Below are positions 197 through 29,021 of a DNA stretch of 64,000 nucleotides, in pieces. Made by a program: the position numbers and the translations under genes. Location of the stretch: NCBI GenBank assembly GCA_016930595.1, contig JAFGGJ010000022.1, forward strand, positions 1 through 64,000. The letters are read 5' to 3'. The number at the start of each line of letters is the position of its first letter. The first letter of the stretch is position 1. This stretch comes from Planctomycetota bacterium. Its GTDB lineage: Bacteria; Planctomycetota; SZUA-567; JAFGGJ01. A model generated the notes under the pieces. It was not told the origin of the DNA. It saw nothing but the letters and a program-made list of their open reading frames with translations, and ran no database searches.

Positions 197-2362
197 ATGG
201 GCAGTCATACGAAGACGCTCAGGCACGGCCGTGCAGGGGGCGCGTCATGGCTGCCGTCCCCCAGGCTCGTGCAATGGATGGCGACGCTGGACTGTCCGCT
301 GTCATGTCCGCACTGCCTGGCGGGCGAATCGGGGCTGGCGCGGGAAATGCCGCTGCGGCAGGTGTTTGCGTTAATCGACCAGTGCGCGGAACTGGAGGTT
401 GAAGAGTTCCTGGTGACGGGCGGCGAGCCGCTTGTCCGGCCCGACCTGCCGGAAGTGATACGCCGGCTGGGGGTAAGGGGCATCCGCTGGAGCGTCAACA
501 CGGCGGTCATGCCGCCGGGGAGCGTCCGCGATGCCATAAGGGAATATCCGCCGGTCTTCGCGGCGGTGAGCCTGGACGGGCCGGAGGAAGTCCACGACTC
601 GTTCCGCGGCAGGGCGGGGGCGTTCGATGAAGCCCTGGAAGCGATAAGGTACTTCAAGTCGCTGGCGGGTGTGCAAGTGGCGGCGGGGACGACGGTTACG
701 ACGGCGAACTTCGACGCGCTGGAAGAAACGCTGCCGATCGCCGCGGGAAGCGGAGCGGACGAGTGGGGCATCCACCTGCCGGTGAAGGAAGGCAGGGCGG
801 CGGAGCGCCCGGACCTGTTCATCGACCGGAAGCAGATGAAGCGGCTGCTGAAGTTCGTGGCGGAAGGGCGGAAGCGTTTCCCCGTCACGATGGCGGACGA
901 GATGGGGCACTGCGGGGCGTGGGAGCGGCTGGTGCGGAGCGCGCCTTTCTACTGCGGGGCGGGGCGGACGCACTGCGTGGTCCTGCCGGACGGGTCGGTG
1001 GTGCCGTGCACGACCATGGACGTGACGACTTCGGCCGGCAACATCAAAGACCGCCCCCTGGCGGAAATCTGGCGGGACGGTTTCGGCGAGATACGTTCGT
1101 GGGAGCCGGAGGGTAAGTGCGGGACTTGTGAATACGCGCCGGCATGCCGGGGCGGGTGCTGGCTGCAGCGCCGGCACGGGACGGAATGTTTCAGGGACGT
1201 GTGGGCGGCACCTGCGATGCTGAAGGCGGCGGCGGCGGCGGTCATGGCGGGGACGCTCACGCTGTCGGCGGCGGGACAGGAAGCCGGCGTGGAGCCCGGG
1301 CCCGCGGTGCCGACACGGCAGCAGCCTGCGGAAGCGCAGGTCCCTGCCGAGACGCGCCTGGAGATGCAGATATACAAGTGGTACACGCGGGACATGGAGG
1401 AAGAGGCCGCGAGGTTTACGGCGGAGAAGTACCCGAGCCTGGACGGGGAAATGCTTGCGGACCCGGCGGGGCAGTACCTGAAGGCGGTGATCGACGGGAA
1501 GCTGCCGGAAGGCATAGAAGCGCGCTGTGCGGCGGTGCAGAAGGCGCTGGAGACGAGGCTGCCTTCGGTGCCGCTGGCGTCGCTGTTGTGGCGCGGCGTG
1601 GGAGAGGCGTGCATGAACGGGAAGGCGCCCGCCGAGAGGACGGAGGCGGAGCGCAGGGCCGTAATGGAGACGATGGCAAGGCTTTACACCGCGGCGACGG
1701 CGTGGCACGCGCAGCACATGGGAAGACGGCACGAGGGGGTGGCTTCGTTGGGCGGCCCGGTTTCACCCGTTTACGGAATGCACGCGAATGCGATGGTGTG
1801 CAAGGGGCACAGGCCGGTGCCTTCATGGGCGAGGTTTGCGGTGGGTACGGAGGGAGAGCGGATAGTGAGCATGGGGCCGCCCGCGAAGATGTCCGTGAGG
1901 GAATGGACGGCGGCGAACCCTCTTGCGGCGGTATACGCGGTGAACCTTGCGGTGAGCGGCGGAAGCGTGACAAGGGTTTCCCCGGCGGGCAGGAACGCGA
2001 CGGGGAGGACGGTGGAGTTCGGGGTTTTCGACGTGCTGCAGGTGGCGGAAGGGGGAGCTCATATCAGCGTCACGTGGAGAGCGCCGCACAGGGAAAAGGG
2101 CATGACGTGGACGGCGGAGGTGCCGGGTAGCTGCGATATCACGTACCCGGAGCTGATGATGCTGGCGAGGCCGGAGAGGCAGGTACTCCCGTTGTTCAGT
2201 GTGAGGCACGAAGGGCCGTGCATGATACGGTACGCGGCGGAATCGGTGGGGCGTTTCGAGTCGCTGATGGACCCGCCGCCTGCGGACCTGGCGGAGCAGA
2301 TGCAGCTGAAGCGGCAACTGCAGGCCGTGAAGAAATGGGTGGCGGACTTCTGGATGTTCTGA
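197..2362 (+). CDS. Radical SAM / SPASM-domain protein with hydrophobic segment and uncharacterised C-terminal extension
   Basis: CPLSCPHC cluster motif, TGGEPL motif, C-terminal Cys-rich SPASM (CGTCEYAPACRGGC), then MLKAAAAAVMAGTLTLSAAG hydrophobic segment and about 340 aa without recognised motif; SD GGAAGGAG before ATG 197. Confidence 0.85.
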   Translation: MGSHTKTLRHGRAGGASWLPSPRLVQWMATLDCPLSCPHCLAGESGLAREMPLRQVFALIDQCAELEVEEFLVTGGEPLVRPDLPEVIRRLGVRGIRWSVNTAVMPPGSVRDAIREYPPVFAAVSLDGPEEVHDSFRGRAGAFDEALEAIRYFKSLAGVQVAAGTTVTTANFDALEETLPIAAGSGADEWGIHLPVKEGRAAERPDLFIDRKQMKRLLKFVAEGRKRFPVTMADEMGHCGAWERLVRSAPFYCGAGRTHCVVLPDGSVVPCTTMDVTTSAGNIKDRPLAEIWRDGFGEIRSWEPEGKCGTCEYAPACRGGCWLQRRHGTECFRDVWAAPAMLKAAAAAVMAGTLTLSAAGQEAGVEPGPAVPTRQQPAEAQVPAETRLEMQIYKWYTRDMEEEAARFTAEKYPSLDGEMLADPAGQYLKAVIDGKLPEGIEARCAAVQKALETRLPSVPLASLLWRGVGEACMNGKAPAERTEAERRAVMETMARLYTAATAWHAQHMGRRHEGVASLGGPVSPVYGMHANAMVCKGHRPVPSWARFAVGTEGERIVSMGPPAKMSVREWTAANPLAAVYAVNLAVSGGSVTRVSPAGRNATGRTVEFGVFDVLQVAEGGAHISVTWRAPHREKGMTWTAEVPGSCDITYPELMMLARPERQVLPLFSVRHEGPCMIRYAAESVGRFESLMDPPPADLAEQMQLKRQLQAVKKWVADFWMF

Positions 2363-2378
2363 GAAACGGAGGCGGTTC

Positions 2379-2399
2379 GGCGGATTCGAGCCCGTCCCC
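2379..2399. repeat. Copy 1 of 21-nt repeat GGCGGATTCGAGCCCGTCCCC
   Basis: Identical 21 nt also at 5896-5916; copies flank the CARDB gene. Confidence 0.8.
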
Positions 2400-2507
2400 A
2401 GGGATGAGGTGGATCTGTCGGTCGTGGGCTTCGGCGGGATAGTGGCGATCGGCCGGCGAGCAGGCTGAGGCTGGCCGGATAGCCGCGCGGGCGGCGCACA
2501 GAAGAAA

Positions 2508-2533
2508 TGCCCGGGCGGTTACCCGCCCGGGCA
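2508..2533 (-). terminator. Bidirectional intrinsic terminator between convergent genes
   Basis: TGCCCGGGCGG-TTAC-CCGCCCGGGCA perfect 11-bp stem; on minus strand followed by TTTCTTC; on plus strand followed by CTTTG. Confidence 0.75.
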
Positions 2534-2562
2534 CTTTGCGTTACGCCCGATACCAGTGCGTG

Positions 2563-5500
2563 TTACGGGACGAACTGGAATGCATCGCTGACCATGAGGT
2601 TATTGCTTTCGTCCATTTCGCTAATTTCACCAAGAGAGTCAACGACAATCTTGACGTAGTAGTTGGTGGAGGCTACGGGAGTGAACGGCAACTGACCGTT
2701 GAATGCAGCGCCAGTCATGCGGCCGGGTTCAAGGAAGCCGAGGGCATCGCAGCCGATGTATTCGTCGTTGACGCCGATCGAAGCGGTATTGTTGGTGGAA
2801 ACCCAGAAGGAAACCACCGACGGGCCGCTTGCGGCACTGAGACTCTGGTTGGAAAGCTCACAATCGGTCCAGATATAGGTATTGGGGCCGTTGAGCCAGT
2901 AGGTGTCGTTGGTCCAGACATCGATAATTGCCAGATCGGCCTTGAAAGGGGCGTCGTCGGCGATGGTAAGCGGGATGAAGCCGAGCGCGCCGCCGCCGAG
3001 GTCAAGCGAGGCGGAATCGTTGTTGTTGTCGTCGGTTTCTGAAATTATGTTGCCGGGGTCAATGACGGCGTAGAGGTAATAGTCGCCTGCAGTGAGGCCT
3101 GAGAGGTCAAGGGCGGCGGGGTCTTCAACTGGATAGTACTTGCCGGGTTCAAGGGCGCCGCAGATATATGTGCCGACCAGTGTGTCACCGGCAGGCACGG
3201 GCGGGAGCGTAGCACCGTCGGTCGAAACGTAGAAGTTAACCGCTACGCCGCCAGGGAGGTCCTGAGTGCCGAAGTTGGCGACAATGAGCATGGGGTGAAC
3301 GATGGTATCGCCGGTCTGGGCGTAGAACGTGGGCGCGGCGCCGGGGCCGTCATCACCCATGTAAGCGACGACAACAAGGTCGGGGCCGCCGGAAGCAGAA
3401 ACCGTAAGCTGGCTGCCTGCGAGCCACCAGTTGTTGGTTTCATCGTCTTCGGGGACGGCGTCGGCTTCATCAATGAGGTAGCCGAGGTAGTAGTCGCCGG
3501 CGGCGGGAGCGGTGATGGAAGCCCAGTAGGGGTCCATCTCGGGGCCCTGGTCGCCGGGGGCGAGGCCGGGGGCGGCGAAGTCATAGGTGCCGACGAGAGT
3601 ATTGTCGCCGGCGGTGGAGAGGTCACTGTCAACAGAGAGGTAGAAGCTGACGGAGAAAGCACCACTTTCGGTGTTGCTGCGTGTGCGGACACTGAAGCCG
3701 AAGCTCATGGCTTCGCCCACTTCCATGGCGGTGATTTGGGGGCCGTCGGAGCCGTCGGCGATGAGGTCGACGATCGCGTCGCTCGCGTCTACGACGAGGA
3801 CCGTATGCGAATAAGGGGTCATGTTGTTGTCTTCATCGGTTTCGGTCACTGCGCCAAGCGTGTCAATGGCGGCGCCGAGGTAGTAGAGTTCGCCGGTGGT
3901 AAGCGTTGAGGGGATGGTGCAGTTTACGCTGAAGTCTGATTCGAGCAGGCTGGTAATCTGTGCGTGTGTGACGTCGACATAGCCGACAAGCGTGTCGCCG
4001 GTGGTGACTTCGGTATCGGACGATAGATAGACGCCGACGCGGATACTTGTGGCCGGGTCATCACCAAGCGACTTGAGGTCGATGTCGACCTTACAGGTCG
4101 TGCCGGCCAGTAGGCTGGTGTACCATTCGCCGGGGCTGTATTCGGCGGATGCGAGGTCGTTAAACCAGATGTTTTCTACGGCGAGGTCGTATTCGCCCGA
4201 GGTTAGGGCGGGAGGGATGACGTCGAAGATCATGAGGTCAGCGGGGGCGTTGACGTTGTTGCCCTCGTTGGTTTCGAATACTTCATCAAGGCTGTCGAAG
4301 ATACAGCCGACGTTGTACCTGCCGGGGCCGGTGCCTGCGGGGATACTGCCGTTCATGGCTGCTGACCCCGCCGCGCCGCCCGGCCAGGAACCGAGGTCAA
4401 CGTAACATATTTCGGTATCGGCGGGCTCGATTGAGGAGTCTTCGGACAAGTAGCCGGAAATACGGAAGGGGCCAACGGCCACACTGTTGAATTCTTCAAC
4501 ATGGCCCCAGATGGTCGGGAGTGTATCGCCGACGCGGGCCGCATGCGGTACGCCGGTGTTCATAACCGGGGCGTGGTAAGGGCCGAGGTCCGGAGGAGTG
4601 CTGACGACAACGACCTGGCCGGCCTGGTTGTTGGCTTCGTTACTTTCGCCAACGTCGTCGCCGGTGTCAACAACGAGGATGAGGTAGCCTGCGCTGGTGT
4701 GGTCGGGGACGGTGAAGTTAAAGGTATGAGTAAACGAGCCGCCTGGTATGGGCCGTGCGTTGGTGTTGACGGTGCCGAGGGTATCGTCGCCGGCGCCGGG
4801 GATGGCGTCGTCGGAGAGGTAAAGTTCACAGGTCCAGACGACAGCCGGTACCTGGAGGGAGCCGATGTTGTTTGCGGCGATATCTACCGAGACGCTGTCG
4901 CCGACGTAGAGGTTAGCCGGTGCGGAGACGATTTCCGGTTCGAGGTCGGCCTGGCCGGAAGCGACAACGGTGAGCTGGTTGGAGGACTGGGCGTCGTTGT
5001 TGAGTTCGTTACTCTCGAGAACAACATCAGTGCCGTCAATGCGGACGAGGACGTAGAAGGTGTCTTCAACGGCGCCGCTGTTAATGAAGTATTGGCCGTC
5101 ATCATCGGTTTCTGCGGCGAGGCTGGCGACCACTTCGGTGCCGCCAAGCGTATCGGCGCCGTCGATGTTGGTGTCAAGGGAGAGCCAGTACTGGACGTTG
5201 AAAGAGACAGCGTCGCCTTTGCCGAGGTTTCTGAGGCGGCGGTTGATAGCGAGGTTCGTGGAAGTGGCGACGGTGGTCACCGCGCAGCTTACGCTGTCTA
5301 CGGTGAGGTCAGGGGTCTTGGTGACGGCGATGGTACCGGCGCAGACGGCGACGTTGTTGGTTTCATCCGTTTCGGCAACGGCGCCGCCCTTGTCGACTTC
5401 GGCAATAATATAGTAGGTGCCGGCACTCAACGAGTCAGGCACAAGCAGGGACGATGGCGGCGAGGACGCTTCGGACGTGCCCGCTGCAAGCGCGGCGACG

Positions 5501-21172: not shown

Positions 21173-21961
21173 ATGCAACTGCTAAGGGACACATTCGATT
21201 TTTTTGCGGAGATAGTACGTTCGGCAGGGCGTGCGGGGATACTTTTCTGGGCGGCGGTGGTGCGGATAGGCTGGGTGCTGCGGCCGAGGACTCTGAAGAA
21301 AGTAGTGCGCCAGGAGTTCATCTGCGGGGTGGCGTCGATACCGGTGGTGACCATAACGGCGCTGTTCAGCGGGATGGTGATAGCCGGCCAGACCGGGTAC
21401 GAGCTGAAGCGTTTCGGCCTGGTGCAGACGTTGGGATCAATAGTCGGCGTGGCGATGTGCCGCGAGATGGGCCCCGTGTTGACGGCGATAGTGGTGGCCG
21501 GGTTCGTGGGCGGCGGCATGGCGAGCGTACTGGGGACGATGAAGGTGAACGAAGAGATAGACGCCCTGGACGTGATGGGGATAGACCCGGTGCGCTACCT
21601 GATAGTGCCGAGGCTCGCTGCGATGTTCATAGCGGCGCCGGCGTTGACCGTGTACGCCGACATCGTGGGCATAATGGGCGGTGCGATGGTGTCCAAATAC
21701 CAGCTCGACCTGCCGTACGACGTGTTCAAGAGCTGGATGCTGGAGACGCTGAGGGTACAGGACATCACGTTCGGCATACTGAAGGGGTTCGTGTTCGGGA
21801 CCATAATAACGATGGTGGCATGCGAGCAGGGGTTTTCGACGCGGGGCGGTGCGGAAGGGGTGGGAAGGGCCACGATGAGGAGCGTGGTGTATTCGTTCCT
21901 GATGATCCTGGTGGCCAACTACGTGCTGTTCAGCCTGATATACAAGCCGTTTTTCACGTAA
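21173..21961 (+). CDS. mlaE: MlaE family ABC transporter permease
   Basis: LFSGMVIAGQTGYELKRFG...VAMCREMGPVLTAIVVAGFVGGGMASVLGTMKVNEEIDALDVMGIDPVRYLIVPR. Confidence 0.93.
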   Translation: MQLLRDTFDFFAEIVRSAGRAGILFWAAVVRIGWVLRPRTLKKVVRQEFICGVASIPVVTITALFSGMVIAGQTGYELKRFGLVQTLGSIVGVAMCREMGPVLTAIVVAGFVGGGMASVLGTMKVNEEIDALDVMGIDPVRYLIVPRLAAMFIAAPALTVYADIVGIMGGAMVSKYQLDLPYDVFKSWMLETLRVQDITFGILKGFVFGTIITMVACEQGFSTRGGAEGVGRATMRSVVYSFLMILVANYVLFSLIYKPFFT

Positions 21962-21974
21962 AGGAGCCGCGGCG

Positions 21975-22898
21975 GTGCTGCTGAAAGCGTTCGAAAGAGC
22001 GGGAAAGCCGTTGAAAGGGAACCTTCATTCGCACACGAAGGTCAGCGACGGCCCGATGGAGCCGCGGGAACTGGCCGCGGCATACCGGGAGAAGGGCTAC
22101 GATTTTCTGGTGTTCACGGACCACAGGAAGGTCATCGAGGACGCCGAAAGCTACGGCGACGGGAAGTTCCTTGTAATCCGCGGGGCGGAACTGCACCCGG
22201 AGAATCCTTACGGGGGAGGGATGTATCATTTTGTCGCCGTGGATCTTGCCGCCGACTGCGATACGGCGGGCAGGCATCCGCAGGAAGTCATAGACCGGGT
22301 GACCGGGGCGGGATCGCTGGTGTACCTGGCGCACCCGTCGTGGAGCGGGCACGGGCGGGCCGACCTTTTCCCCCTGCACGGGTATCACGGGGTGGAAGTC
22401 GCGAATTACGGGTGCAGGGAAGTGGACCGGATGGTGTCGGAAGACCAGTGGGACGACCTGAACAGTTGGCAGGGACTTACGAACGGCATAGCCGTGGACG
22501 ACGGCCATCGGGTGAACGACATCGGCGGGGCGTGGGTCATGGTGAACGCGGGCGGCAACACGGTGAAAGAGATAAAGACGGCGCTGGCGGAGGGGAGGTT
22601 CTATTCGTCGACGGGGCCGGAGATCTACTCGGTGGAAGTGGAAGCTGCCGACGTCGCGAAGGCGGAAGGGACGGTGCCGGGGACGAGGATAAGGGTGAAG
22701 TCTTCGCCCATTGTCAGGGCCTACCTGCGGAGCGTGCCGACGCACGGGGCGTTCATTGAAGGGGATGAAACCGGGGAGGTGGAATTCACGACCAGGAGAA
22801 GGGACTTGTTCTACCGGGTGGTTGTGGAGGACGGCAGGGGACGGCGGGCGTGGAGCAATCCGTTCGTGCCGGAGCGATTGTTCGAGGTGAAGACATGA
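21975..22898 (+). CDS. PHP domain metal-dependent hydrolase
   Basis: GNLHSHTKVSDGPMEPRELAAAYREKGYDFLVFTDHRKV; VYLAHPSW; GTG start. Confidence 0.85.
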   Translation: MLLKAFERAGKPLKGNLHSHTKVSDGPMEPRELAAAYREKGYDFLVFTDHRKVIEDAESYGDGKFLVIRGAELHPENPYGGGMYHFVAVDLAADCDTAGRHPQEVIDRVTGAGSLVYLAHPSWSGHGRADLFPLHGYHGVEVANYGCREVDRMVSEDQWDDLNSWQGLTNGIAVDDGHRVNDIGGAWVMVNAGGNTVKEIKTALAEGRFYSSTGPEIYSVEVEAADVAKAEGTVPGTRIRVKSSPIVRAYLRSVPTHGAFIEGDETGEVEFTTRRRDLFYRVVVEDGRGRRAWSNPFVPERLFEVKT

Positions 22899-24250
22899 GG
22901 GAAGCCATGGCGGCGATGCTGTTGATCGGAGCGTGTCTGCCCGCGGCCTGCGAAGAGACGATGCCGGCCGCGGAAAGCGCCGTGCGGAGCCTGGTGCTGA
23001 ACCTCCAGAAGACCGGCCCCGCCGAGGCCGAGTACGTGGTGAAGTCGGGAGAAACGGCGATTGCCGTGATAAACATCGTGTATGCTCATCCGGTGCTGAA
23101 GATGGCGACCGTACGGGGGGATGAAACCAGCGAACTCTGGGTGGCGGGAGCGGATTCCTACAGCAGGGAGGGGAAAGAGGGGCTCCTGGTGCACAGGGAT
23201 TACCGGGAGGCGCGCAGGCTGGCGGATGAACTGGAGAAAAAGCTGGAGAGCGTGTTCAACGACGCCGCCGCCAACAACATGGCCGGTACCGGCCGGACAC
23301 TCAAAGACGCCTGGAACGCCAATTCGCTGCGCATTGCCCAGATAGGGGCGGTGGCGGACGTCTATTTCATGACCATGGAGGGCGAGTTGTGCGATGCGGG
23401 GGGCTACGCCCACATGGATCCGTCACCGATATGCGCGTTCGGGTGGTTCACTTACCCGGAGGGCGTTGAGGAAGTCCGGGAAGGCGAGGTGTCGGTAAGC
23501 CGCGGGAATACGACGGTCGTCATCGAAACGGCCACGGGATGGCCGCAGCGCGTGGAATGGCGCAGCGGCGGCCGCGTGACGGGCGTGATGGAGAGAACGG
23601 CTTTCAGAAAGGTGAAAACGACGGGGCCGGATCTGCTGCCGCCGGCATGGGAGCGGCAGGCGGCCATAGAAGGCGATGCCTACCGGAAAAGCGACCTTGC
23701 CCGGATAGTTTCGATGCCGTTGTGGATGTACGTCATGGCGGTGTCGCAAAAGGCGGGGAACGACGTGCCGGAACAGGCCGTGGACAAACTGCGCGGGGTG
23801 GCTTTCGCTTACTACGGGGCGATGCTGGATTCGATCCTGGGGAAAGACTTCATCGTGGAGGCGGCGGCGGTATTCGAGCAGGAAGTTTCCGAAAAAGTGG
23901 AAGAGTTGGGCAGGCCGGCGGGCGTGATAACCGCGGCCGATGCAAAGGTGATTTCCGACAAGATAGACGGGACGGTGGTTGAAATAATCGACCGGCAGGG
24001 ACGGATGCTGGCCCGGCAGGGGTACACGGGCGTGGATTTTCTCATGCAGGCGATGGGTGGGAAGCCGCCGAATTCGCTGTCGGCGCTGACACAGGCGGCG
24101 CTGCAGGGTTTTTCGGGGGCGTACAACAGCCGGATCGGAAAACCGGTGCACGGTCTTGTTCGCTGGCATTACAGGGAATACTGGCTGGCGCCGGCGATCG
24201 GGGAAGAGGAGAGGTTGAAGGAAAAAGCGGAGGAGGGAAAGCCCCGGTGA
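22895..24250 (+). CDS. Uncharacterised secreted protein encoded inside the Mla operon
   Basis: N-terminal signal-like MREAMAAMLLIGACLPAACEE; overlaps neighbours by 4 nt on both sides. Confidence 0.7.
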   Translation: MREAMAAMLLIGACLPAACEETMPAAESAVRSLVLNLQKTGPAEAEYVVKSGETAIAVINIVYAHPVLKMATVRGDETSELWVAGADSYSREGKEGLLVHRDYREARRLADELEKKLESVFNDAAANNMAGTGRTLKDAWNANSLRIAQIGAVADVYFMTMEGELCDAGGYAHMDPSPICAFGWFTYPEGVEEVREGEVSVSRGNTTVVIETATGWPQRVEWRSGGRVTGVMERTAFRKVKTTGPDLLPPAWERQAAIEGDAYRKSDLARIVSMPLWMYVMAVSQKAGNDVPEQAVDKLRGVAFAYYGAMLDSILGKDFIVEAAAVFEQEVSEKVEELGRPAGVITAADAKVISDKIDGTVVEIIDRQGRMLARQGYTGVDFLMQAMGGKPPNSLSALTQAALQGFSGAYNSRIGKPVHGLVRWHYREYWLAPAIGEEERLKEKAEEGKPR

Positions 24251-25044
24251 AGCCGGACGGGAACAGGACGGCGATTATCAGGATAAGCGGCCTGCGCAAG
24301 AAGCTGGGCGGGCGCGAGGTATTGAGGGGCGTCGACCTGGAGATATACGAGGGGACTACCACCACGATACTGGGGATATCCGGCTGCGGGAAGACGACGC
24401 TGCTGAAACACGTCATAGGGCTGCACAAGGCGGACGAAGGGACGGTGGAGGTAAAAGGGGTGGACATGAGCCGCGCCGGGCGCGAGGAAGTGCTGGAGGA
24501 GAGGCGCAAGATAGGGATGGTTTTCCAGAATGCGGCGCTGCTGCAGAGCCTGAGCGTGATGGAAAACGTTTCCCTGCCGCTTTATGAGAACACCAGGATG
24601 AGGGTTCCGGAGATACTGAAGATCGCCCGGCAGAAACTGGCGCTGGTGAGGCTTTCCGGGTACGAGGATTATTCCCCGGCGAACCTGTCGGGGGGCATGA
24701 GAAAACGCGCCGGCGTGGCGAGGGCCATAGTCACGGATCCGGACATTATCCTGTACGATGAGCCGACCACGGGGCTGGACCCGATAATCACGAACACGGT
24801 AAACGAACTGATAACGGACATGAAACAGAAACTGCAGGTGACAAGCGTGGTGATAAGCCACGACATCCCCAGCGCGATGCGGACATCGGACTACGTGGCG
24901 ATACTTCACAACGGGCGGATATTCGCCTATGGCACGCCGGAGGAGGTCGGCGGAAGCAGCGATCCGGTGGTGCAGCAGTTTCTGCGCGGCGACACGAAGG
25001 GACCCATTACCGACATGCTGTGGGGCGACGAGGAGGCGGACTGA
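24247..25044 (+). CDS. mlaF: MlaF-type ABC transporter ATP-binding protein
   Basis: GISGCGKTTLLKHVIGL (Walker A), NLSGGMRKRAGVARAIVTDPDIILYDEPTTGLDPI. Confidence 0.93.
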   Translation: MKPDGNRTAIIRISGLRKKLGGREVLRGVDLEIYEGTTTTILGISGCGKTTLLKHVIGLHKADEGTVEVKGVDMSRAGREEVLEERRKIGMVFQNAALLQSLSVMENVSLPLYENTRMRVPEILKIARQKLALVRLSGYEDYSPANLSGGMRKRAGVARAIVTDPDIILYDEPTTGLDPIITNTVNELITDMKQKLQVTSVVISHDIPSAMRTSDYVAILHNGRIFAYGTPEEVGGSSDPVVQQFLRGDTKGPITDMLWGDEEAD

Positions 25045-25046
25045 AC

Positions 25047-26828
25047 ATGCGTCTGCGCAAAGCGTGCATAGCTGCCGTGCTGGCCGCCGCCGCCACGGGC
25101 TGCAGCGTGGACCAGGTGGGACTCGAATATCCTCCGGGCATGACGGAAATGCTGCATCTTTCGGCGCTGACGGGCGAAGAAGACCGGATGGATACCAGGC
25201 GCGGCGAGCCCGGCGATACGGCGGCGGGCCTGCCGCCGCTGTGCTCGGTGTCGCGCAACGAGCGCGAGGACACGGTGGCAACGGACGTCGTGTACCCGTT
25301 GTTTTCCTACCGGCGGCGGAAGGACGTGAGGGAGACGGCGTTCAGGCCCCTGTTCTACGTCAAGCAGGACCCGGTGGAGAACCGCACGGACGCGTGGTTC
25401 ATATATCCGCTGGGCAGGTACAGGAGGGTGGGGAAGAACCGGTATTTTTCGTTCTGGCCGTTCTACTGGAACAAGCAGTACCACGCGGGCAGGCACGTGA
25501 ACCACAAGCCGGAGCCGTCAACGGGGTCCCTGGAGGAATTCGCGGAAAGAAAAACCCTGCCCGGAGAGACTATGGACCTGGACTGGGCGCTGTACCCGAT
25601 TCTGTTCGGCGGGGCGGACCAGGAGCACGGGAAGTACTTCGCGTTCTTCCCCGTAGGGGGCATGATCAAGGGCATGCTGGGGAAGGAGTGGATGCGTTTC
25701 GTCCTGTTCCCGCTCTACCTGGAGAGTTATGACAAAAGGTATCATTCCTGGAACGTGATATGGCCGGTGTTCGGGTATTGGCGGGGGCCGGACCAGCGTG
25801 GGTGGCGGTTCTGGCCGATATGCGGGTCGAACGTCCGGGAGGGGAAGTTTTCCAGGAAGTTCTTTCTGTGGCCGCTGGGCGTGTGGTGGCGGGTCGGCCT
25901 GGACCTCGATAATTCCACCACGGTGTTCACGCTGCTGCCCTTCTACGGACAGATGGACAACAAGCACCTGCATATAAAGACGGTGATGTGGCCGTTCTTC
26001 AGCAGGAAGTACGACGACAGGCGGGGACTGGTGGAATGGCACTGTCCGTGGCCGATCTATTCATGCACGCGCGGGCATGGGCTCGAGGGCGTCAAGGTGT
26101 GGCCGTTCTTCGGATACAGGGCGTCGAATTCGCAGCGCAACCTTACGGTCATGTGGCCTCTGTACACCCGGACGCTGAAGAGAGAGGAGGCGCGGACGAC
26201 GCTGACGCGATCGTCGTGCCTGGTTTTCTACCAGTGGACGGAGAAGTGGCGGGAATACGACCTGGGGGACAAGACGGTTGTGGCGGCGCCTCCCAGGAAC
26301 GACACGGGGACGATATTCGGCGAGAGATGGGTGCCGGACCCGCGTTTTGAAGAACCTGCGACGGACCCGAGGCTTATCGGGGCGCCTTACGAAGAGTATG
26401 AGAGGACGTTCTGGAAAGTGTGGCCGATCTGCCACTACAGGAAAGGCGCCGACGGCAGCAGGGCGTTCCAGATGCTGTCGCCGCTGCCGTGGCGGGGCAG
26501 CCCCGGGAGTGCGAACACGTATGCGCCTTTCTGGACGCTCTACCGATGGCAGCAGGACGGCGAGGGGCAGATTCGGGAATACGCCTTGTTCGGACTGTAT
26601 CACAACATCCGCGACGATCACATGCGGGACGTGAACGTACTGGGTCTGGTGCAGTACAGGCGGGAAGGGTGGTACTACAAGAAGTTCTTTGTGCTGGGGG
26701 GGCTTGTGGGATACGAACGCGTGGGATATGATAAAGGCATGAGGTTCCTGTGGATACCTGTGAACCGTATAGGGCGGGACGAATGGGACAGGTACAGGAG
26801 CGGGGGCTTCATGGAGGAGGAGCAATGA
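25047..26828 (+). CDS. Putative lipoprotein with about 19 degenerate aromatic/Trp-Pro repeats
   Basis: Lipobox AAVLAAAATGC; repeated hydrophobic-W-P-hydrophobic-aromatic motifs (FWPFYW, IWPVFGYW, RFWPICG, LWPLGVW, MWPFFSR, PWPIYS, VWPFFGYR, MWPLYTR, VWPICHYR). Confidence 0.8.
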   Translation: MRLRKACIAAVLAAAATGCSVDQVGLEYPPGMTEMLHLSALTGEEDRMDTRRGEPGDTAAGLPPLCSVSRNEREDTVATDVVYPLFSYRRRKDVRETAFRPLFYVKQDPVENRTDAWFIYPLGRYRRVGKNRYFSFWPFYWNKQYHAGRHVNHKPEPSTGSLEEFAERKTLPGETMDLDWALYPILFGGADQEHGKYFAFFPVGGMIKGMLGKEWMRFVLFPLYLESYDKRYHSWNVIWPVFGYWRGPDQRGWRFWPICGSNVREGKFSRKFFLWPLGVWWRVGLDLDNSTTVFTLLPFYGQMDNKHLHIKTVMWPFFSRKYDDRRGLVEWHCPWPIYSCTRGHGLEGVKVWPFFGYRASNSQRNLTVMWPLYTRTLKREEARTTLTRSSCLVFYQWTEKWREYDLGDKTVVAAPPRNDTGTIFGERWVPDPRFEEPATDPRLIGAPYEEYERTFWKVWPICHYRKGADGSRAFQMLSPLPWRGSPGSANTYAPFWTLYRWQQDGEGQIREYALFGLYHNIRDDHMRDVNVLGLVQYRREGWYYKKFFVLGGLVGYERVGYDKGMRFLWIPVNRIGRDEWDRYRSGGFMEEEQ

Positions 26829-27916
26829 AGGAAGCTGTTGTCGGGATCTTCCTGTTCATAGCGCTGCTGCTGATGATAATGCTCACGTACTTTTCCGATG
26901 ACGAGCACAAGCTGTTCAACAAGCCGCAGTTCAAGGGATACAAGGCCCGCTTTGAGACGGTGGTCGGCCTGAGGGAGGGCGACCCGGTGTACCTGTCGGG
27001 GCTCAAGGTGGGAAGGATAACCGGCACGTCGCTTGTGGACACCGAGAACGAGACGACGCTCGTGGAAGTATCGTTCGAAGTGGATACCAAGTACGTGGTG
27101 CGGACGGATACGAAGGCCCGGATACAGATGACGAGCCTGATGGGCGGCAAGATGCTTTCCCTTACTCCGGGGACGCCCGGCGCCCCCCCCATGAAGGAAG
27201 GGAACGTGATAGAGACGGCCGAAGCGGTGGACATCGACACGCTGATAGTCAGTGCGACACAGACGCTGGCGAACATCGGGGGCACCGTGGAAGAAGTCAG
27301 GCCCGCCCTGTCGAAAACGATAGGCAACCTGCAGCGGATAACCGACGGTGTCGAGCCGGACAGGGTCAGGAAGATAGTCGAAGACATACAGCAGACGGCG
27401 GCGAACTTCCGTGAGATATCCGAGAAAGTGAACAAGGGCGAGGGCACGGTGGCGCGCCTGATAAACGACCCCGACCTCGGCGCCGACGTGAAGAAAGCCG
27501 TGGGGGACCTTACGCGGACCGTCGAAGACATAAGGAAAATCATGGCGGACGTGGAAGCTGGCAAGGGGACGGTAGGAGTGCTGTTGAAAGACCCCGAAAC
27601 GGCTGAACGCGTGAAGGAGATCGCCAAGGACATCCGGGACATAACGAAGCGGCTGTCCGAAGGCCAGGGGACGCTGGGTCTCCTGATAAACGAGCCGGAC
27701 GTGTACAAGGATCTCTCGTCTGCGGTAAAGAATATCAACGACGTGACCGGCAAGCTGGCTTCCACGGAGGGCACGCTGGGCGGCCTGATAAACGACCCCG
27801 AGGTCTATTTTGAGATAAAGCGCGTTCTGACGGAAGCCCGCGAGGCCGTTGAGGACGCCCGTGAGCAGGCGCCGCTGTCGGCGTTCGGCAGCCTGATATT
27901 CGGGGCCATACAATAG
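26825..27916 (+). CDS. mlaD: MlaD/MCE-domain substrate-binding protein with C-terminal repeats
   Basis: N-terminal TM, 'FKGYKARFETVVGLREGDPVYLSGLKVGRITG' MCE motif; C-terminal 'GxGTxGxLxxDPxxxxx' repeats. Confidence 0.9.
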   Translation: MKEAVVGIFLFIALLLMIMLTYFSDDEHKLFNKPQFKGYKARFETVVGLREGDPVYLSGLKVGRITGTSLVDTENETTLVEVSFEVDTKYVVRTDTKARIQMTSLMGGKMLSLTPGTPGAPPMKEGNVIETAEAVDIDTLIVSATQTLANIGGTVEEVRPALSKTIGNLQRITDGVEPDRVRKIVEDIQQTAANFREISEKVNKGEGTVARLINDPDLGADVKKAVGDLTRTVEDIRKIMADVEAGKGTVGVLLKDPETAERVKEIAKDIRDITKRLSEGQGTLGLLINEPDVYKDLSSAVKNINDVTGKLASTEGTLGGLINDPEVYFEIKRVLTEAREAVEDAREQAPLSAFGSLIFGAIQ

Positions 27917-27953: not shown

Positions 27954-29021
27954 ATGCATCGTCTTGAGATCGCCCTGACAGGCTTCCCCGGGAGCGGCAA
28001 GACCACGCTGTGGAACGCGCTTACCGGGAGTTCCCGGCCGACCGGCGACTACATGGGCCGGCCCCACGTTGAAAAGGGGGTGTTTCTCGTTCCGGACGGG
28101 AGGCTGGGCGAATTCGGGACGGCGATCAAGTCGAAGAAGACGGTGCCTTTCCATGCCGACGTGTACGACGTGACCGGCCTGATATCCATGGAAGGCGGCC
28201 GCGCTGCCGTGTCGGACGAACTCCTTTCGACGGTGAGGCACGCGGACCTGCTTGTGCTGGTGCTGAGGGCGTTCAGCTCCGGCGGCCATCCGGGCGGAGC
28301 CCCGAGGCCCGCCGACGAACTGGCGGCGCTTCTGGAGGAATTGCACTTCAGGGACATAAACCTTCTGGACAACCGCGTCAGCCGCATCGAGGAAACGGTG
28401 GCCAAGCCCGTGCCCAACCGGGACGAACTGAAAGCGGAGTCGGTGCTCTGCCGGCGCCTGCTGCAGGAACTGGAAAGCGGCGGACGGCCGCGGCCGGAAT
28501 CCCTGACCGGAGCCGAACGCGGGATGCTGAAAGGCTACCGGCTGTTTTCGCTGATGCCGCTGCTGGTGTTTGTCAACACGGGTTCGGAGGCGGGTATCGG
28601 CGCACTCGACACGGGAGGACTGTCCGCGGTGGGATATCCCGCAGCCATGGAAAGCGAACTTGCCGGGTTCGGCGGCGAGGAGGAAGCGGCCATGCGCAGT
28701 GAACTGGGCCTGCAGGCAGACATGGCGCACGTTTTTGCGGAGGGAATGAAGGAAGCCCTGGACCTGGTGTACTTCTACACCGGGAGCGAGAAGGAAGCCA
28801 ACGCATGGGCCCTCTACAACGGGGACAACGCTCTCGAGGCGGCCGGTACGATCCACAGCGACATAGCGCAGGGATTCATAAGGGCGGAGGTCACACCGGT
28901 CGACGCGATAATCCGGCACGGGGGCTATTCCGGGGCAAAGAAAGCCAACGCCACCCGCGAAGAAGGCAGGGAATACGTGATGCTCGACGGGGACGTGATC
29001 ACGGTCCGGTTCAGCAGGTAG
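27954..29021 (+). CDS. Divergent YchF/OBG-like GTPase with TGS domain
   Basis: GFPGSGKTTLWNALTG Walker A; C-terminal EKEANAWALYNGDNALEAAGTIHSDIAQGFIRAEVTPVDAIIRHGGYSGAKKANATREEGREYVMLDGDVITVRFS resembles YchF TGS region. Confidence 0.8.
   Translation: MHRLEIALTGFPGSGKTTLWNALTGSSRPTGDYMGRPHVEKGVFLVPDGRLGEFGTAIKSKKTVPFHADVYDVTGLISMEGGRAAVSDELLSTVRHADLLVLVLRAFSSGGHPGGAPRPADELAALLEELHFRDINLLDNRVSRIEETVAKPVPNRDELKAESVLCRRLLQELESGGRPRPESLTGAERGMLKGYRLFSLMPLLVFVNTGSEAGIGALDTGGLSAVGYPAAMESELAGFGGEEEAAMRSELGLQADMAHVFAEGMKEALDLVYFYTGSEKEANAWALYNGDNALEAAGTIHSDIAQGFIRAEVTPVDAIIRHGGYSGAKKANATREEGREYVMLDGDVITVRFSR

What the first reader, a model, noticed from the sequence alone, without database searches (positions are those of the whole stretch)
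25047..26828. Trp-Pro repeat lipoprotein: candidate new envelope protein family
About 19 degenerate units of roughly 25-35 aa centred on aromatic/hydrophobic-(W)-P-hydrophobic-aromatic (VYPLFSYRR, FWPFYWNK, FPLYLES, IWPVFGYWR, FWPICGSN, LWPLGVWWR, LPFYGQ, MWPFFSRK, PWPIYSCT, VWPFFGYR, MWPLYTR, VWPICHYR). The regularity suggests antiparallel strands forming a barrel, propeller or groove anchored in the outer membrane, next to MlaD.
Basis: partly seen in the sequence, partly recalled or inferred. Interest (0 to 1): 0.72.

Follow-up and report, generated by a model that had tools for sequence, protein, structure and literature searches.

The report
MCE-operon Trp-Pro beta-ribbon protein
A secreted protein built from about 40 short beta-strands with Trp-Pro turns is the constant gene partner of an MCE lipid transporter in Planctomycetes, Verrucomicrobia, Leptospira relatives and others, which makes it a good candidate for the missing outer-membrane end of that transporter.

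Summary
The repeat is real. Window 25047-26825 encodes a 593-aa predicted lipoprotein with 14 hydrophobic-(W/Y/F/L)-P-hydrophobic motifs (shuffled mean 1.1, maximum 7 in 20,000). The true spacing is 17-22 aa per Trp-Pro unit, two short strands each, not 25-35.

It is not isolated. A profile finds near-full-length relatives in 63 of 149 genomes of the window's phylum (inferred Planctomycetota), about 67 of 115 Verrucomicrobiota-type genomes and most Leptospirales searched, plus Dadabacteria, Abyssobacteria and others. Of 149 homologous loci, 128 carry mlaE/mlaF/mlaD on the same strand, 16 are cut off and 5 do not; 88 have exactly WP-mlaE-mlaF-mlaD. No Pfam, PDB or above-cutoff NCBIfam family covers it; the only named relative is the uncharacterised LA_1737 family of Leptospira.

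AlphaFold2 predicts (pLDDT about 97 in the core) a continuous antiparallel meander of 6-residue strands, Trp-Pro hairpin turns on one edge, polar turns on the other. Covariation supports pairing across both turn types. Foldseek finds no global match; locally it resembles OspA/TCP/MORN single-layer sheets.

Best reading: an envelope-side accessory, probably at the outer-membrane end, of barrel-less MlaEFD systems that lack MlaA and MlaC. Lipid contact and location are inferred.

The parts
25047..26828 (+). WP-repeat protein (593 aa), predicted lipoprotein; ribbon of about 42 short beta-strands with Trp-Pro turns
   Evidence: family profile A3 scores it E=1.3e-124
25047..25103 (+). Sec/SPII signal peptide, lipobox ...LAAAATG|C (Cys 19)
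   Evidence: sequence; PROSITE-type pattern; not confirmed by a dedicated signal-peptide predictor
25242..26258 (+). Trp-Pro hairpin core, residues 66-404, 33 strands, pLDDT mostly 90-98
   Evidence: covariation at the predicted register
26394..26747 (+). C-terminal strand region, residues 450-567, Trp-Pro largely replaced by L-x-G-L turns
24247..25044 (+). MlaF-type ABC ATPase, ends 2 nt before the WP gene
   Evidence: Pfam ABC_tran 1.9e-31, NCBIfam MlaF model 1.7e-56 (below that model's cutoff)
26825..27916 (+). MlaD/MCE protein (363 aa, one MCE domain), overlaps the WP stop codon by 4 nt
   Evidence: Pfam MlaD 9.2e-15
21173..21961 (+). MlaE-type permease of the same gene cluster
   Evidence: Pfam MlaE 2.7e-72
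21975..22898 (+). PHP/CehA-like metallohydrolase, kept in one relative (L032)
   Evidence: NCBIfam CehA_McbA 1.6e-21, just below its cutoff
22850..24250 (+). 466-aa ORF with a possible signal peptide, no family; no homologue seen in the 40 phylum loci

Best explanation
The gene encodes a member of a mostly single-copy envelope protein family dedicated to one kind of MCE (MlaEFD) lipid transporter. Shown: the gene is kept with mlaE/mlaF/mlaD across several phyla and across changed gene orders, and the sequence has an export signal. Predicted with high confidence: the exported part is a long antiparallel meander of 6-residue strands, Trp-Pro hairpin turns along one edge and polar turns along the other. 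Inferred: it sits on the periplasmic face of the outer membrane (by its lipid anchor in Planctomycetota, by other contacts where it is not lipidated), receives the distal end of the MlaD tunnel, and its aromatic Trp-Pro edge contacts the membrane or the lipid, so that it does for these barrel-less MlaD systems what MlaA/MlaC or PqiC do elsewhere.
For: Synteny: 128 of 133 informative homologous loci have mlaE/F/D on the same strand within 6 kb, 88 in the exact order WP-mlaE-mlaF-mlaD, others as mlaE-mlaF-WP-mlaD, mlaF-WP-mlaE-mlaD and mlaE-mlaF-mlaD-WP. The searches that found them used the WP sequence alone. Leptospirales: 11 of 16 loci have mlaE next door. Nine of nine genomes reached through named loci hold exactly one copy. 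All 63 Planctomycetota genomes with a near-full-length match also have MlaD, while only 7 have MlaA and 3 have MlaC; the window's own genome (82% complete) has neither. In G130, MlaA and MlaC lie in a separate cluster with a short MlaD, and the WP gene in another with a long MlaD. Export signals in most members. Fold: mean pLDDT 82.8 for the whole protein, 95.1 for residues 172-400; covariation peaks at the AF2 register for Trp-Pro turns (mean z 1.26 against 0.48/0.26 one residue off) and for polar turns (1.17). [quoted passage not shown]
Against: No physical interaction, location or lipid binding is shown. About 58% of the phylum's sampled genomes lack a near-full-length match although nearly all have MlaD, so the protein is not needed for every MlaEFD system. 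Five loci have the gene away from mce genes, and several Leptospirales too. Lipidation is not conserved. Covariation and AF2 draw on overlapping alignments. The two faces of the sheet differ only modestly in hydrophobicity (49% and 37% hydrophobic), so no obvious greasy groove is visible from sequence.
Confidence: 0.58

Rival explanations
1. Structural tether or collar: it only anchors or spaces the MlaD assembly at the outer membrane or peptidoglycan and does not touch lipid, as PqiC has been proposed to act as a collar.
For: Same genetic evidence as the best reading; PqiC is an operon-encoded outer-membrane lipoprotein proposed to anchor PqiB (PMC10897342); long repeat ribbons are typical scaffolds; the faces are only mildly hydrophobic.
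Against: The strong conservation of Trp/Pro/Phe turns (12-14 invariant columns) is more than a spacer seems to need.
Confidence: 0.22
2. Integral outer-membrane beta-barrel or propeller partner.
For: Many antiparallel strands; many members have Sec-type signals without a lipid anchor; weak local Foldseek hits to WD40 proteins.
Against: Strands are about 6 residues long, too short to cross a membrane; OMPs appear only with probability <= 0.08; no match has TM above 0.37 for the core; covariation shows neighbouring strands paired throughout without a four-strand period, and no support for long kinked strands.
Confidence: 0.08
3. Periplasmic lipid shuttle (MlaC-like chaperone) rather than an outer-membrane part.
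For: Leptospirales and most Verrucomicrobiota members are not lipidated; MlaC is absent from 60 of 63 genomes with the gene.
Against: A ribbon of about 40 strands is unlike MlaC and offers no evident closed pocket; most Planctomycetota members look lipidated.
Confidence: 0.1

Closest known systems
LA_1737 family (NCBIfam NF047486), uncharacterised Leptospira proteins
   Same: Shares the Trp-Pro strand repeat; giant Leptospirales proteins found with this family's profile score 81 and 96 bits on NF047486.
   Different: Window protein scores 13.7 bits against a cutoff of 60, only 3 of 80 family members hit it at E<=0.01; the giants examined are 1,284 and 2,266 aa.
MlaA / MlaC (Mla pathway)
   Same: Envelope-side partners of an MlaEFD transporter; MlaA is an outer-membrane lipoprotein.
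   Different: No Pfam relation; predicted beta-ribbon; mostly in genomes without MlaA or MlaC.
PqiC (ABC auxiliary lipoprotein, DUF330)
   Same: Operon-encoded outer-membrane lipoprotein serving an MCE protein (PMC10897342, PMC5561183).
   Different: No Pfam match; PqiC is 187 aa and forms an octameric ring.
C-terminal beta-barrel of Veillonella MlaD
   Same: Outer-membrane end of a minimal MlaEFD system without MlaA/MlaC (PMC10665443).
   Different: A domain of MlaD itself, reported absent from PVC; here a separate gene with a predicted open ribbon.
OspA / TCP10 / MORN single-layer beta-sheets
   Same: Local geometry: free-standing antiparallel meanders of short strands (Foldseek probability up to 1.00).
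   Different: Core TM-scores at most 0.37, no sequence relation found, other functions.

Membership tests
Accessory component of an MCE (MlaEFD) system | Gene in one cluster with mlaE, mlaF and an MCE gene, conserved across lineages | tested here: met
   128 of 133 informative loci; window cluster
Accessory component of an MCE (MlaEFD) system | Physical interaction with MlaD or effect on lipid transport | not testable with these tools
   needs experiment or complex prediction
MlaA | PF04333 domain | tested here: not met
   no Pfam hit
MlaC | PF05494 domain | tested here: not met
   no Pfam hit
PqiC / DUF330 | ABC auxiliary lipoprotein domain in Pfam | tested here: not met
   no Pfam hit
LA_1737 family (NF047486) | score above 60 bits | tested here: not met
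   13.7 bits; best E among 80 members 5.8e-5; a distant sister family
MORN repeat proteins | Pfam MORN repeat | tested here: not met
   no Pfam hit in 80 members; only local shape similarity
Outer-membrane beta-barrel | closed barrel of membrane-spanning strands | tested here: not met
   about 6-residue strands in two AF2 models; no OMP match; prediction only
Bacterial lipoprotein | lipobox Cys after a signal peptide | tested here: met
   window protein fits the PROSITE pattern by sequence; not a trait of the whole family; no dedicated predictor run

The most novel reading that the evidence does not exclude
The protein is a new type of lipid-transport part: a long single-layer beta-ribbon (about 33-42 strands, 160-200 A if extended, an inference from 4.8 A per strand) whose Trp-Pro edge forms a continuous aromatic track between the MlaD tunnel and the outer membrane, and it is the ancestral outer-membrane partner of barrel-less MlaEFD systems in PVC bacteria, Leptospira and others.
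Probability: 0.22. Interest if true: 0.85.

Novelty: new variant of a known kind. Interest (0 to 1): 0.64.

Why it matters
How the widespread MlaEFD-only systems reach the outer membrane when they lack MlaA, MlaC and an MlaD barrel is open; a 2023 study found the barrel completely absent in PVC bacteria (PMC10665443). A conserved, operon-bound protein family without any curated Pfam model gives that question a named gene that can be deleted, localised and cross-linked. It also defines an unusual predicted fold, and it offers the uncharacterised giant LA_1737 proteins of Leptospira a relative with a lipid-transport context.

Tried and rejected
A family search with P0001 alone in genome contigs found nothing, and two alignments were too diverse for that tool; a degenerate DNA pattern worked. 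The first whole-genome pattern search was uninformative. PDB sequence searches gave nothing. The kinked-long-strand model (Trp-Pro as a bend inside a 16-residue strand) was tested by covariation and dropped: mean z 0.23, against 1.26 for the hairpin model. Propeller: dropped for lack of a four-strand period and no global match. The library search for LA_1737 returned only papers with an identically spelled, unrelated code. No held paper seen describes this gene beside MCE operons, but subscription papers and preprints are not held, so priority is not settled. AF2 coordinates are not exposed, so overall curvature and any groove could not be examined.

Full report
What is there. Window 25047-26828 (+) encodes a 593-aa protein. 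It begins with MRLRKACIAAVLAAAATGC, a Sec signal with a plausible lipobox. It lies 2 nt after an mlaF-type ATPase gene and overlaps the start of an mlaD/MCE gene by 4 nt; an mlaE-type permease gene lies upstream in the same direction, separated by a PHP-type hydrolase and an ORF without a family.

Is the repeat real? The motif hydrophobic-(W/F/Y/L/I/V)-Pro-hydrophobic occurs 14 times; 20,000 shuffles of the same residues gave a mean of 1.08 and a maximum of 7. Prolines after a hydrophobic residue are spaced 17-22 aa in the core, not 25-35. Units align between distant homologues: 12 columns over 30 sequences and 14 over 80 are invariant, most of them Pro.

How widespread? BLAST-type search hit 64 of 149 genomes from the same phylum. 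A profile of 80 sequences gave near-full-length matches in 63. The phylum is inferred to be Planctomycetota because one of those genomes contains a contig of the same length (9157) and encoding the same protein N-terminus as a named Planctomycetota contig, PWKM01000072.1 (L115). Relatives of an Ereboglobus genome have a match in 69 of 115, nearly always one copy, and most Leptospirales genomes searched have it.

Genome context. In 149 homologous loci, 128 carry mlaE/F/D on the same strand within 6 kb, 16 stop at an edge, 5 have none. The commonest order is WP-mlaE-mlaF-mlaD (88 loci); several other orders keep the gene inside or at either end of the operon. In Leptospirales 11 of 16 short loci have mlaE next door. 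At least one locus is in both sets (L034 and L115), which does not change the picture. MlaD is present in 145 of 149 genomes, so the WP gene marks a subset of MCE systems. MlaA is found in 16 and MlaC in 10 of the 149, in 7 and 3 of the 63 genomes with the WP gene. In G130 the mlaA/mlaC cluster with a short MlaD and the WP cluster with a long MlaD are separate. Clusters looked at in relatives without the gene read mlaE-mlaF-mlaD with no detectable substitute.

Fold. AF2 with 79 homologues gave mean pLDDT 82.8, pTM 0.74, most of residues 61-400 and 451-570 at 90-98. The core alone (172-400) gave 95.1 and 0.80. Both show strands of about 6 residues joined alternately by Trp-Pro turns of 3-4 residues and polar turns. 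Mean-field coupling analysis on 143 sequences (Neff 107) shows strand k with k+1 enriched (z>3 in 4.0% of pairs, against 0.2-0.6% for k+3 and beyond). At the AF2 register the mean z is 1.26 across Trp-Pro turns and 1.17 across polar turns, falling at one residue's shift, and only 0.23 for the rival kinked-long-strand model. AF2 used an overlapping alignment, so the two are not independent. Foldseek finds no global match in PDB or viral models; the core matches OspA and TCP10 single-layer sheets locally (probability up to 1.00, TM at most 0.37), with MORN proteins among the viral hits.

Known families. Pfam: none for any of 80 members at E<=0.01. NCBIfam: only LA_1737_Cterm, far below its cutoff, and one stray hit. 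Giant Leptospirales repeat proteins detected by the family profile pass that cutoff, so LA_1737 is a distant named sister, for which I found no functional paper. PDB: none.

Function. The genetic link to MlaEFD is about as strong as synteny can make it. That the protein acts at the outer-membrane end is inference: it is exported, often lipidated in Planctomycetota (32 of 48) but not in Leptospirales (0 of 18), and occurs where MlaA/MlaC and, by PMC10665443, the MlaD barrel are mostly missing. PqiC gives a precedent for an operon-encoded outer-membrane lipoprotein that holds an MCE protein (PMC10897342). Whether the Trp-Pro edge touches lipid or only membrane surface or protein cannot be told here; the sheet faces are only mildly different in hydrophobicity.

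Verdict. Observation right in kind, wrong in unit size; 'new envelope family' right; 'barrel or propeller' not supported; 'lipoprotein' holds for this member and only part of the family.

Noticed in passing
L217 (G000:C40), 2064-3389 minus strand: A second Trp-Pro repeat protein (up to 441 aa, plausible lipobox LAGC) in the same genome, away from MCE genes in the 6 kb read; it scores 72 bits on the family profile and 24 bits on LA_1737_Cterm.
   Followed up: partly
L224, 3182-9982 and 10049-13903 (+): Two giant Trp-Pro repeat proteins (2,266 and 1,284 aa) side by side in a Leptospirales genome, with LA_1737_Cterm at their C-termini; similar giants appear in many relatives.
   Followed up: partly
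window 22850-24250 (+): 466-aa exported-looking ORF between mlaE and mlaF with no family and no BLAST homologue in the 40 phylum loci; its first half reminded me of LolA-like periplasmic proteins (not tested).
   Followed up: no
L041, L042, L043, L045: A group of closely related Planctomycetota WP genes without mce genes nearby, a useful exception for testing the functional link.
   Followed up: no
window 27954-29018 (+): GTPase with a YchF-type C-terminal domain directly after mlaD.
   Followed up: no
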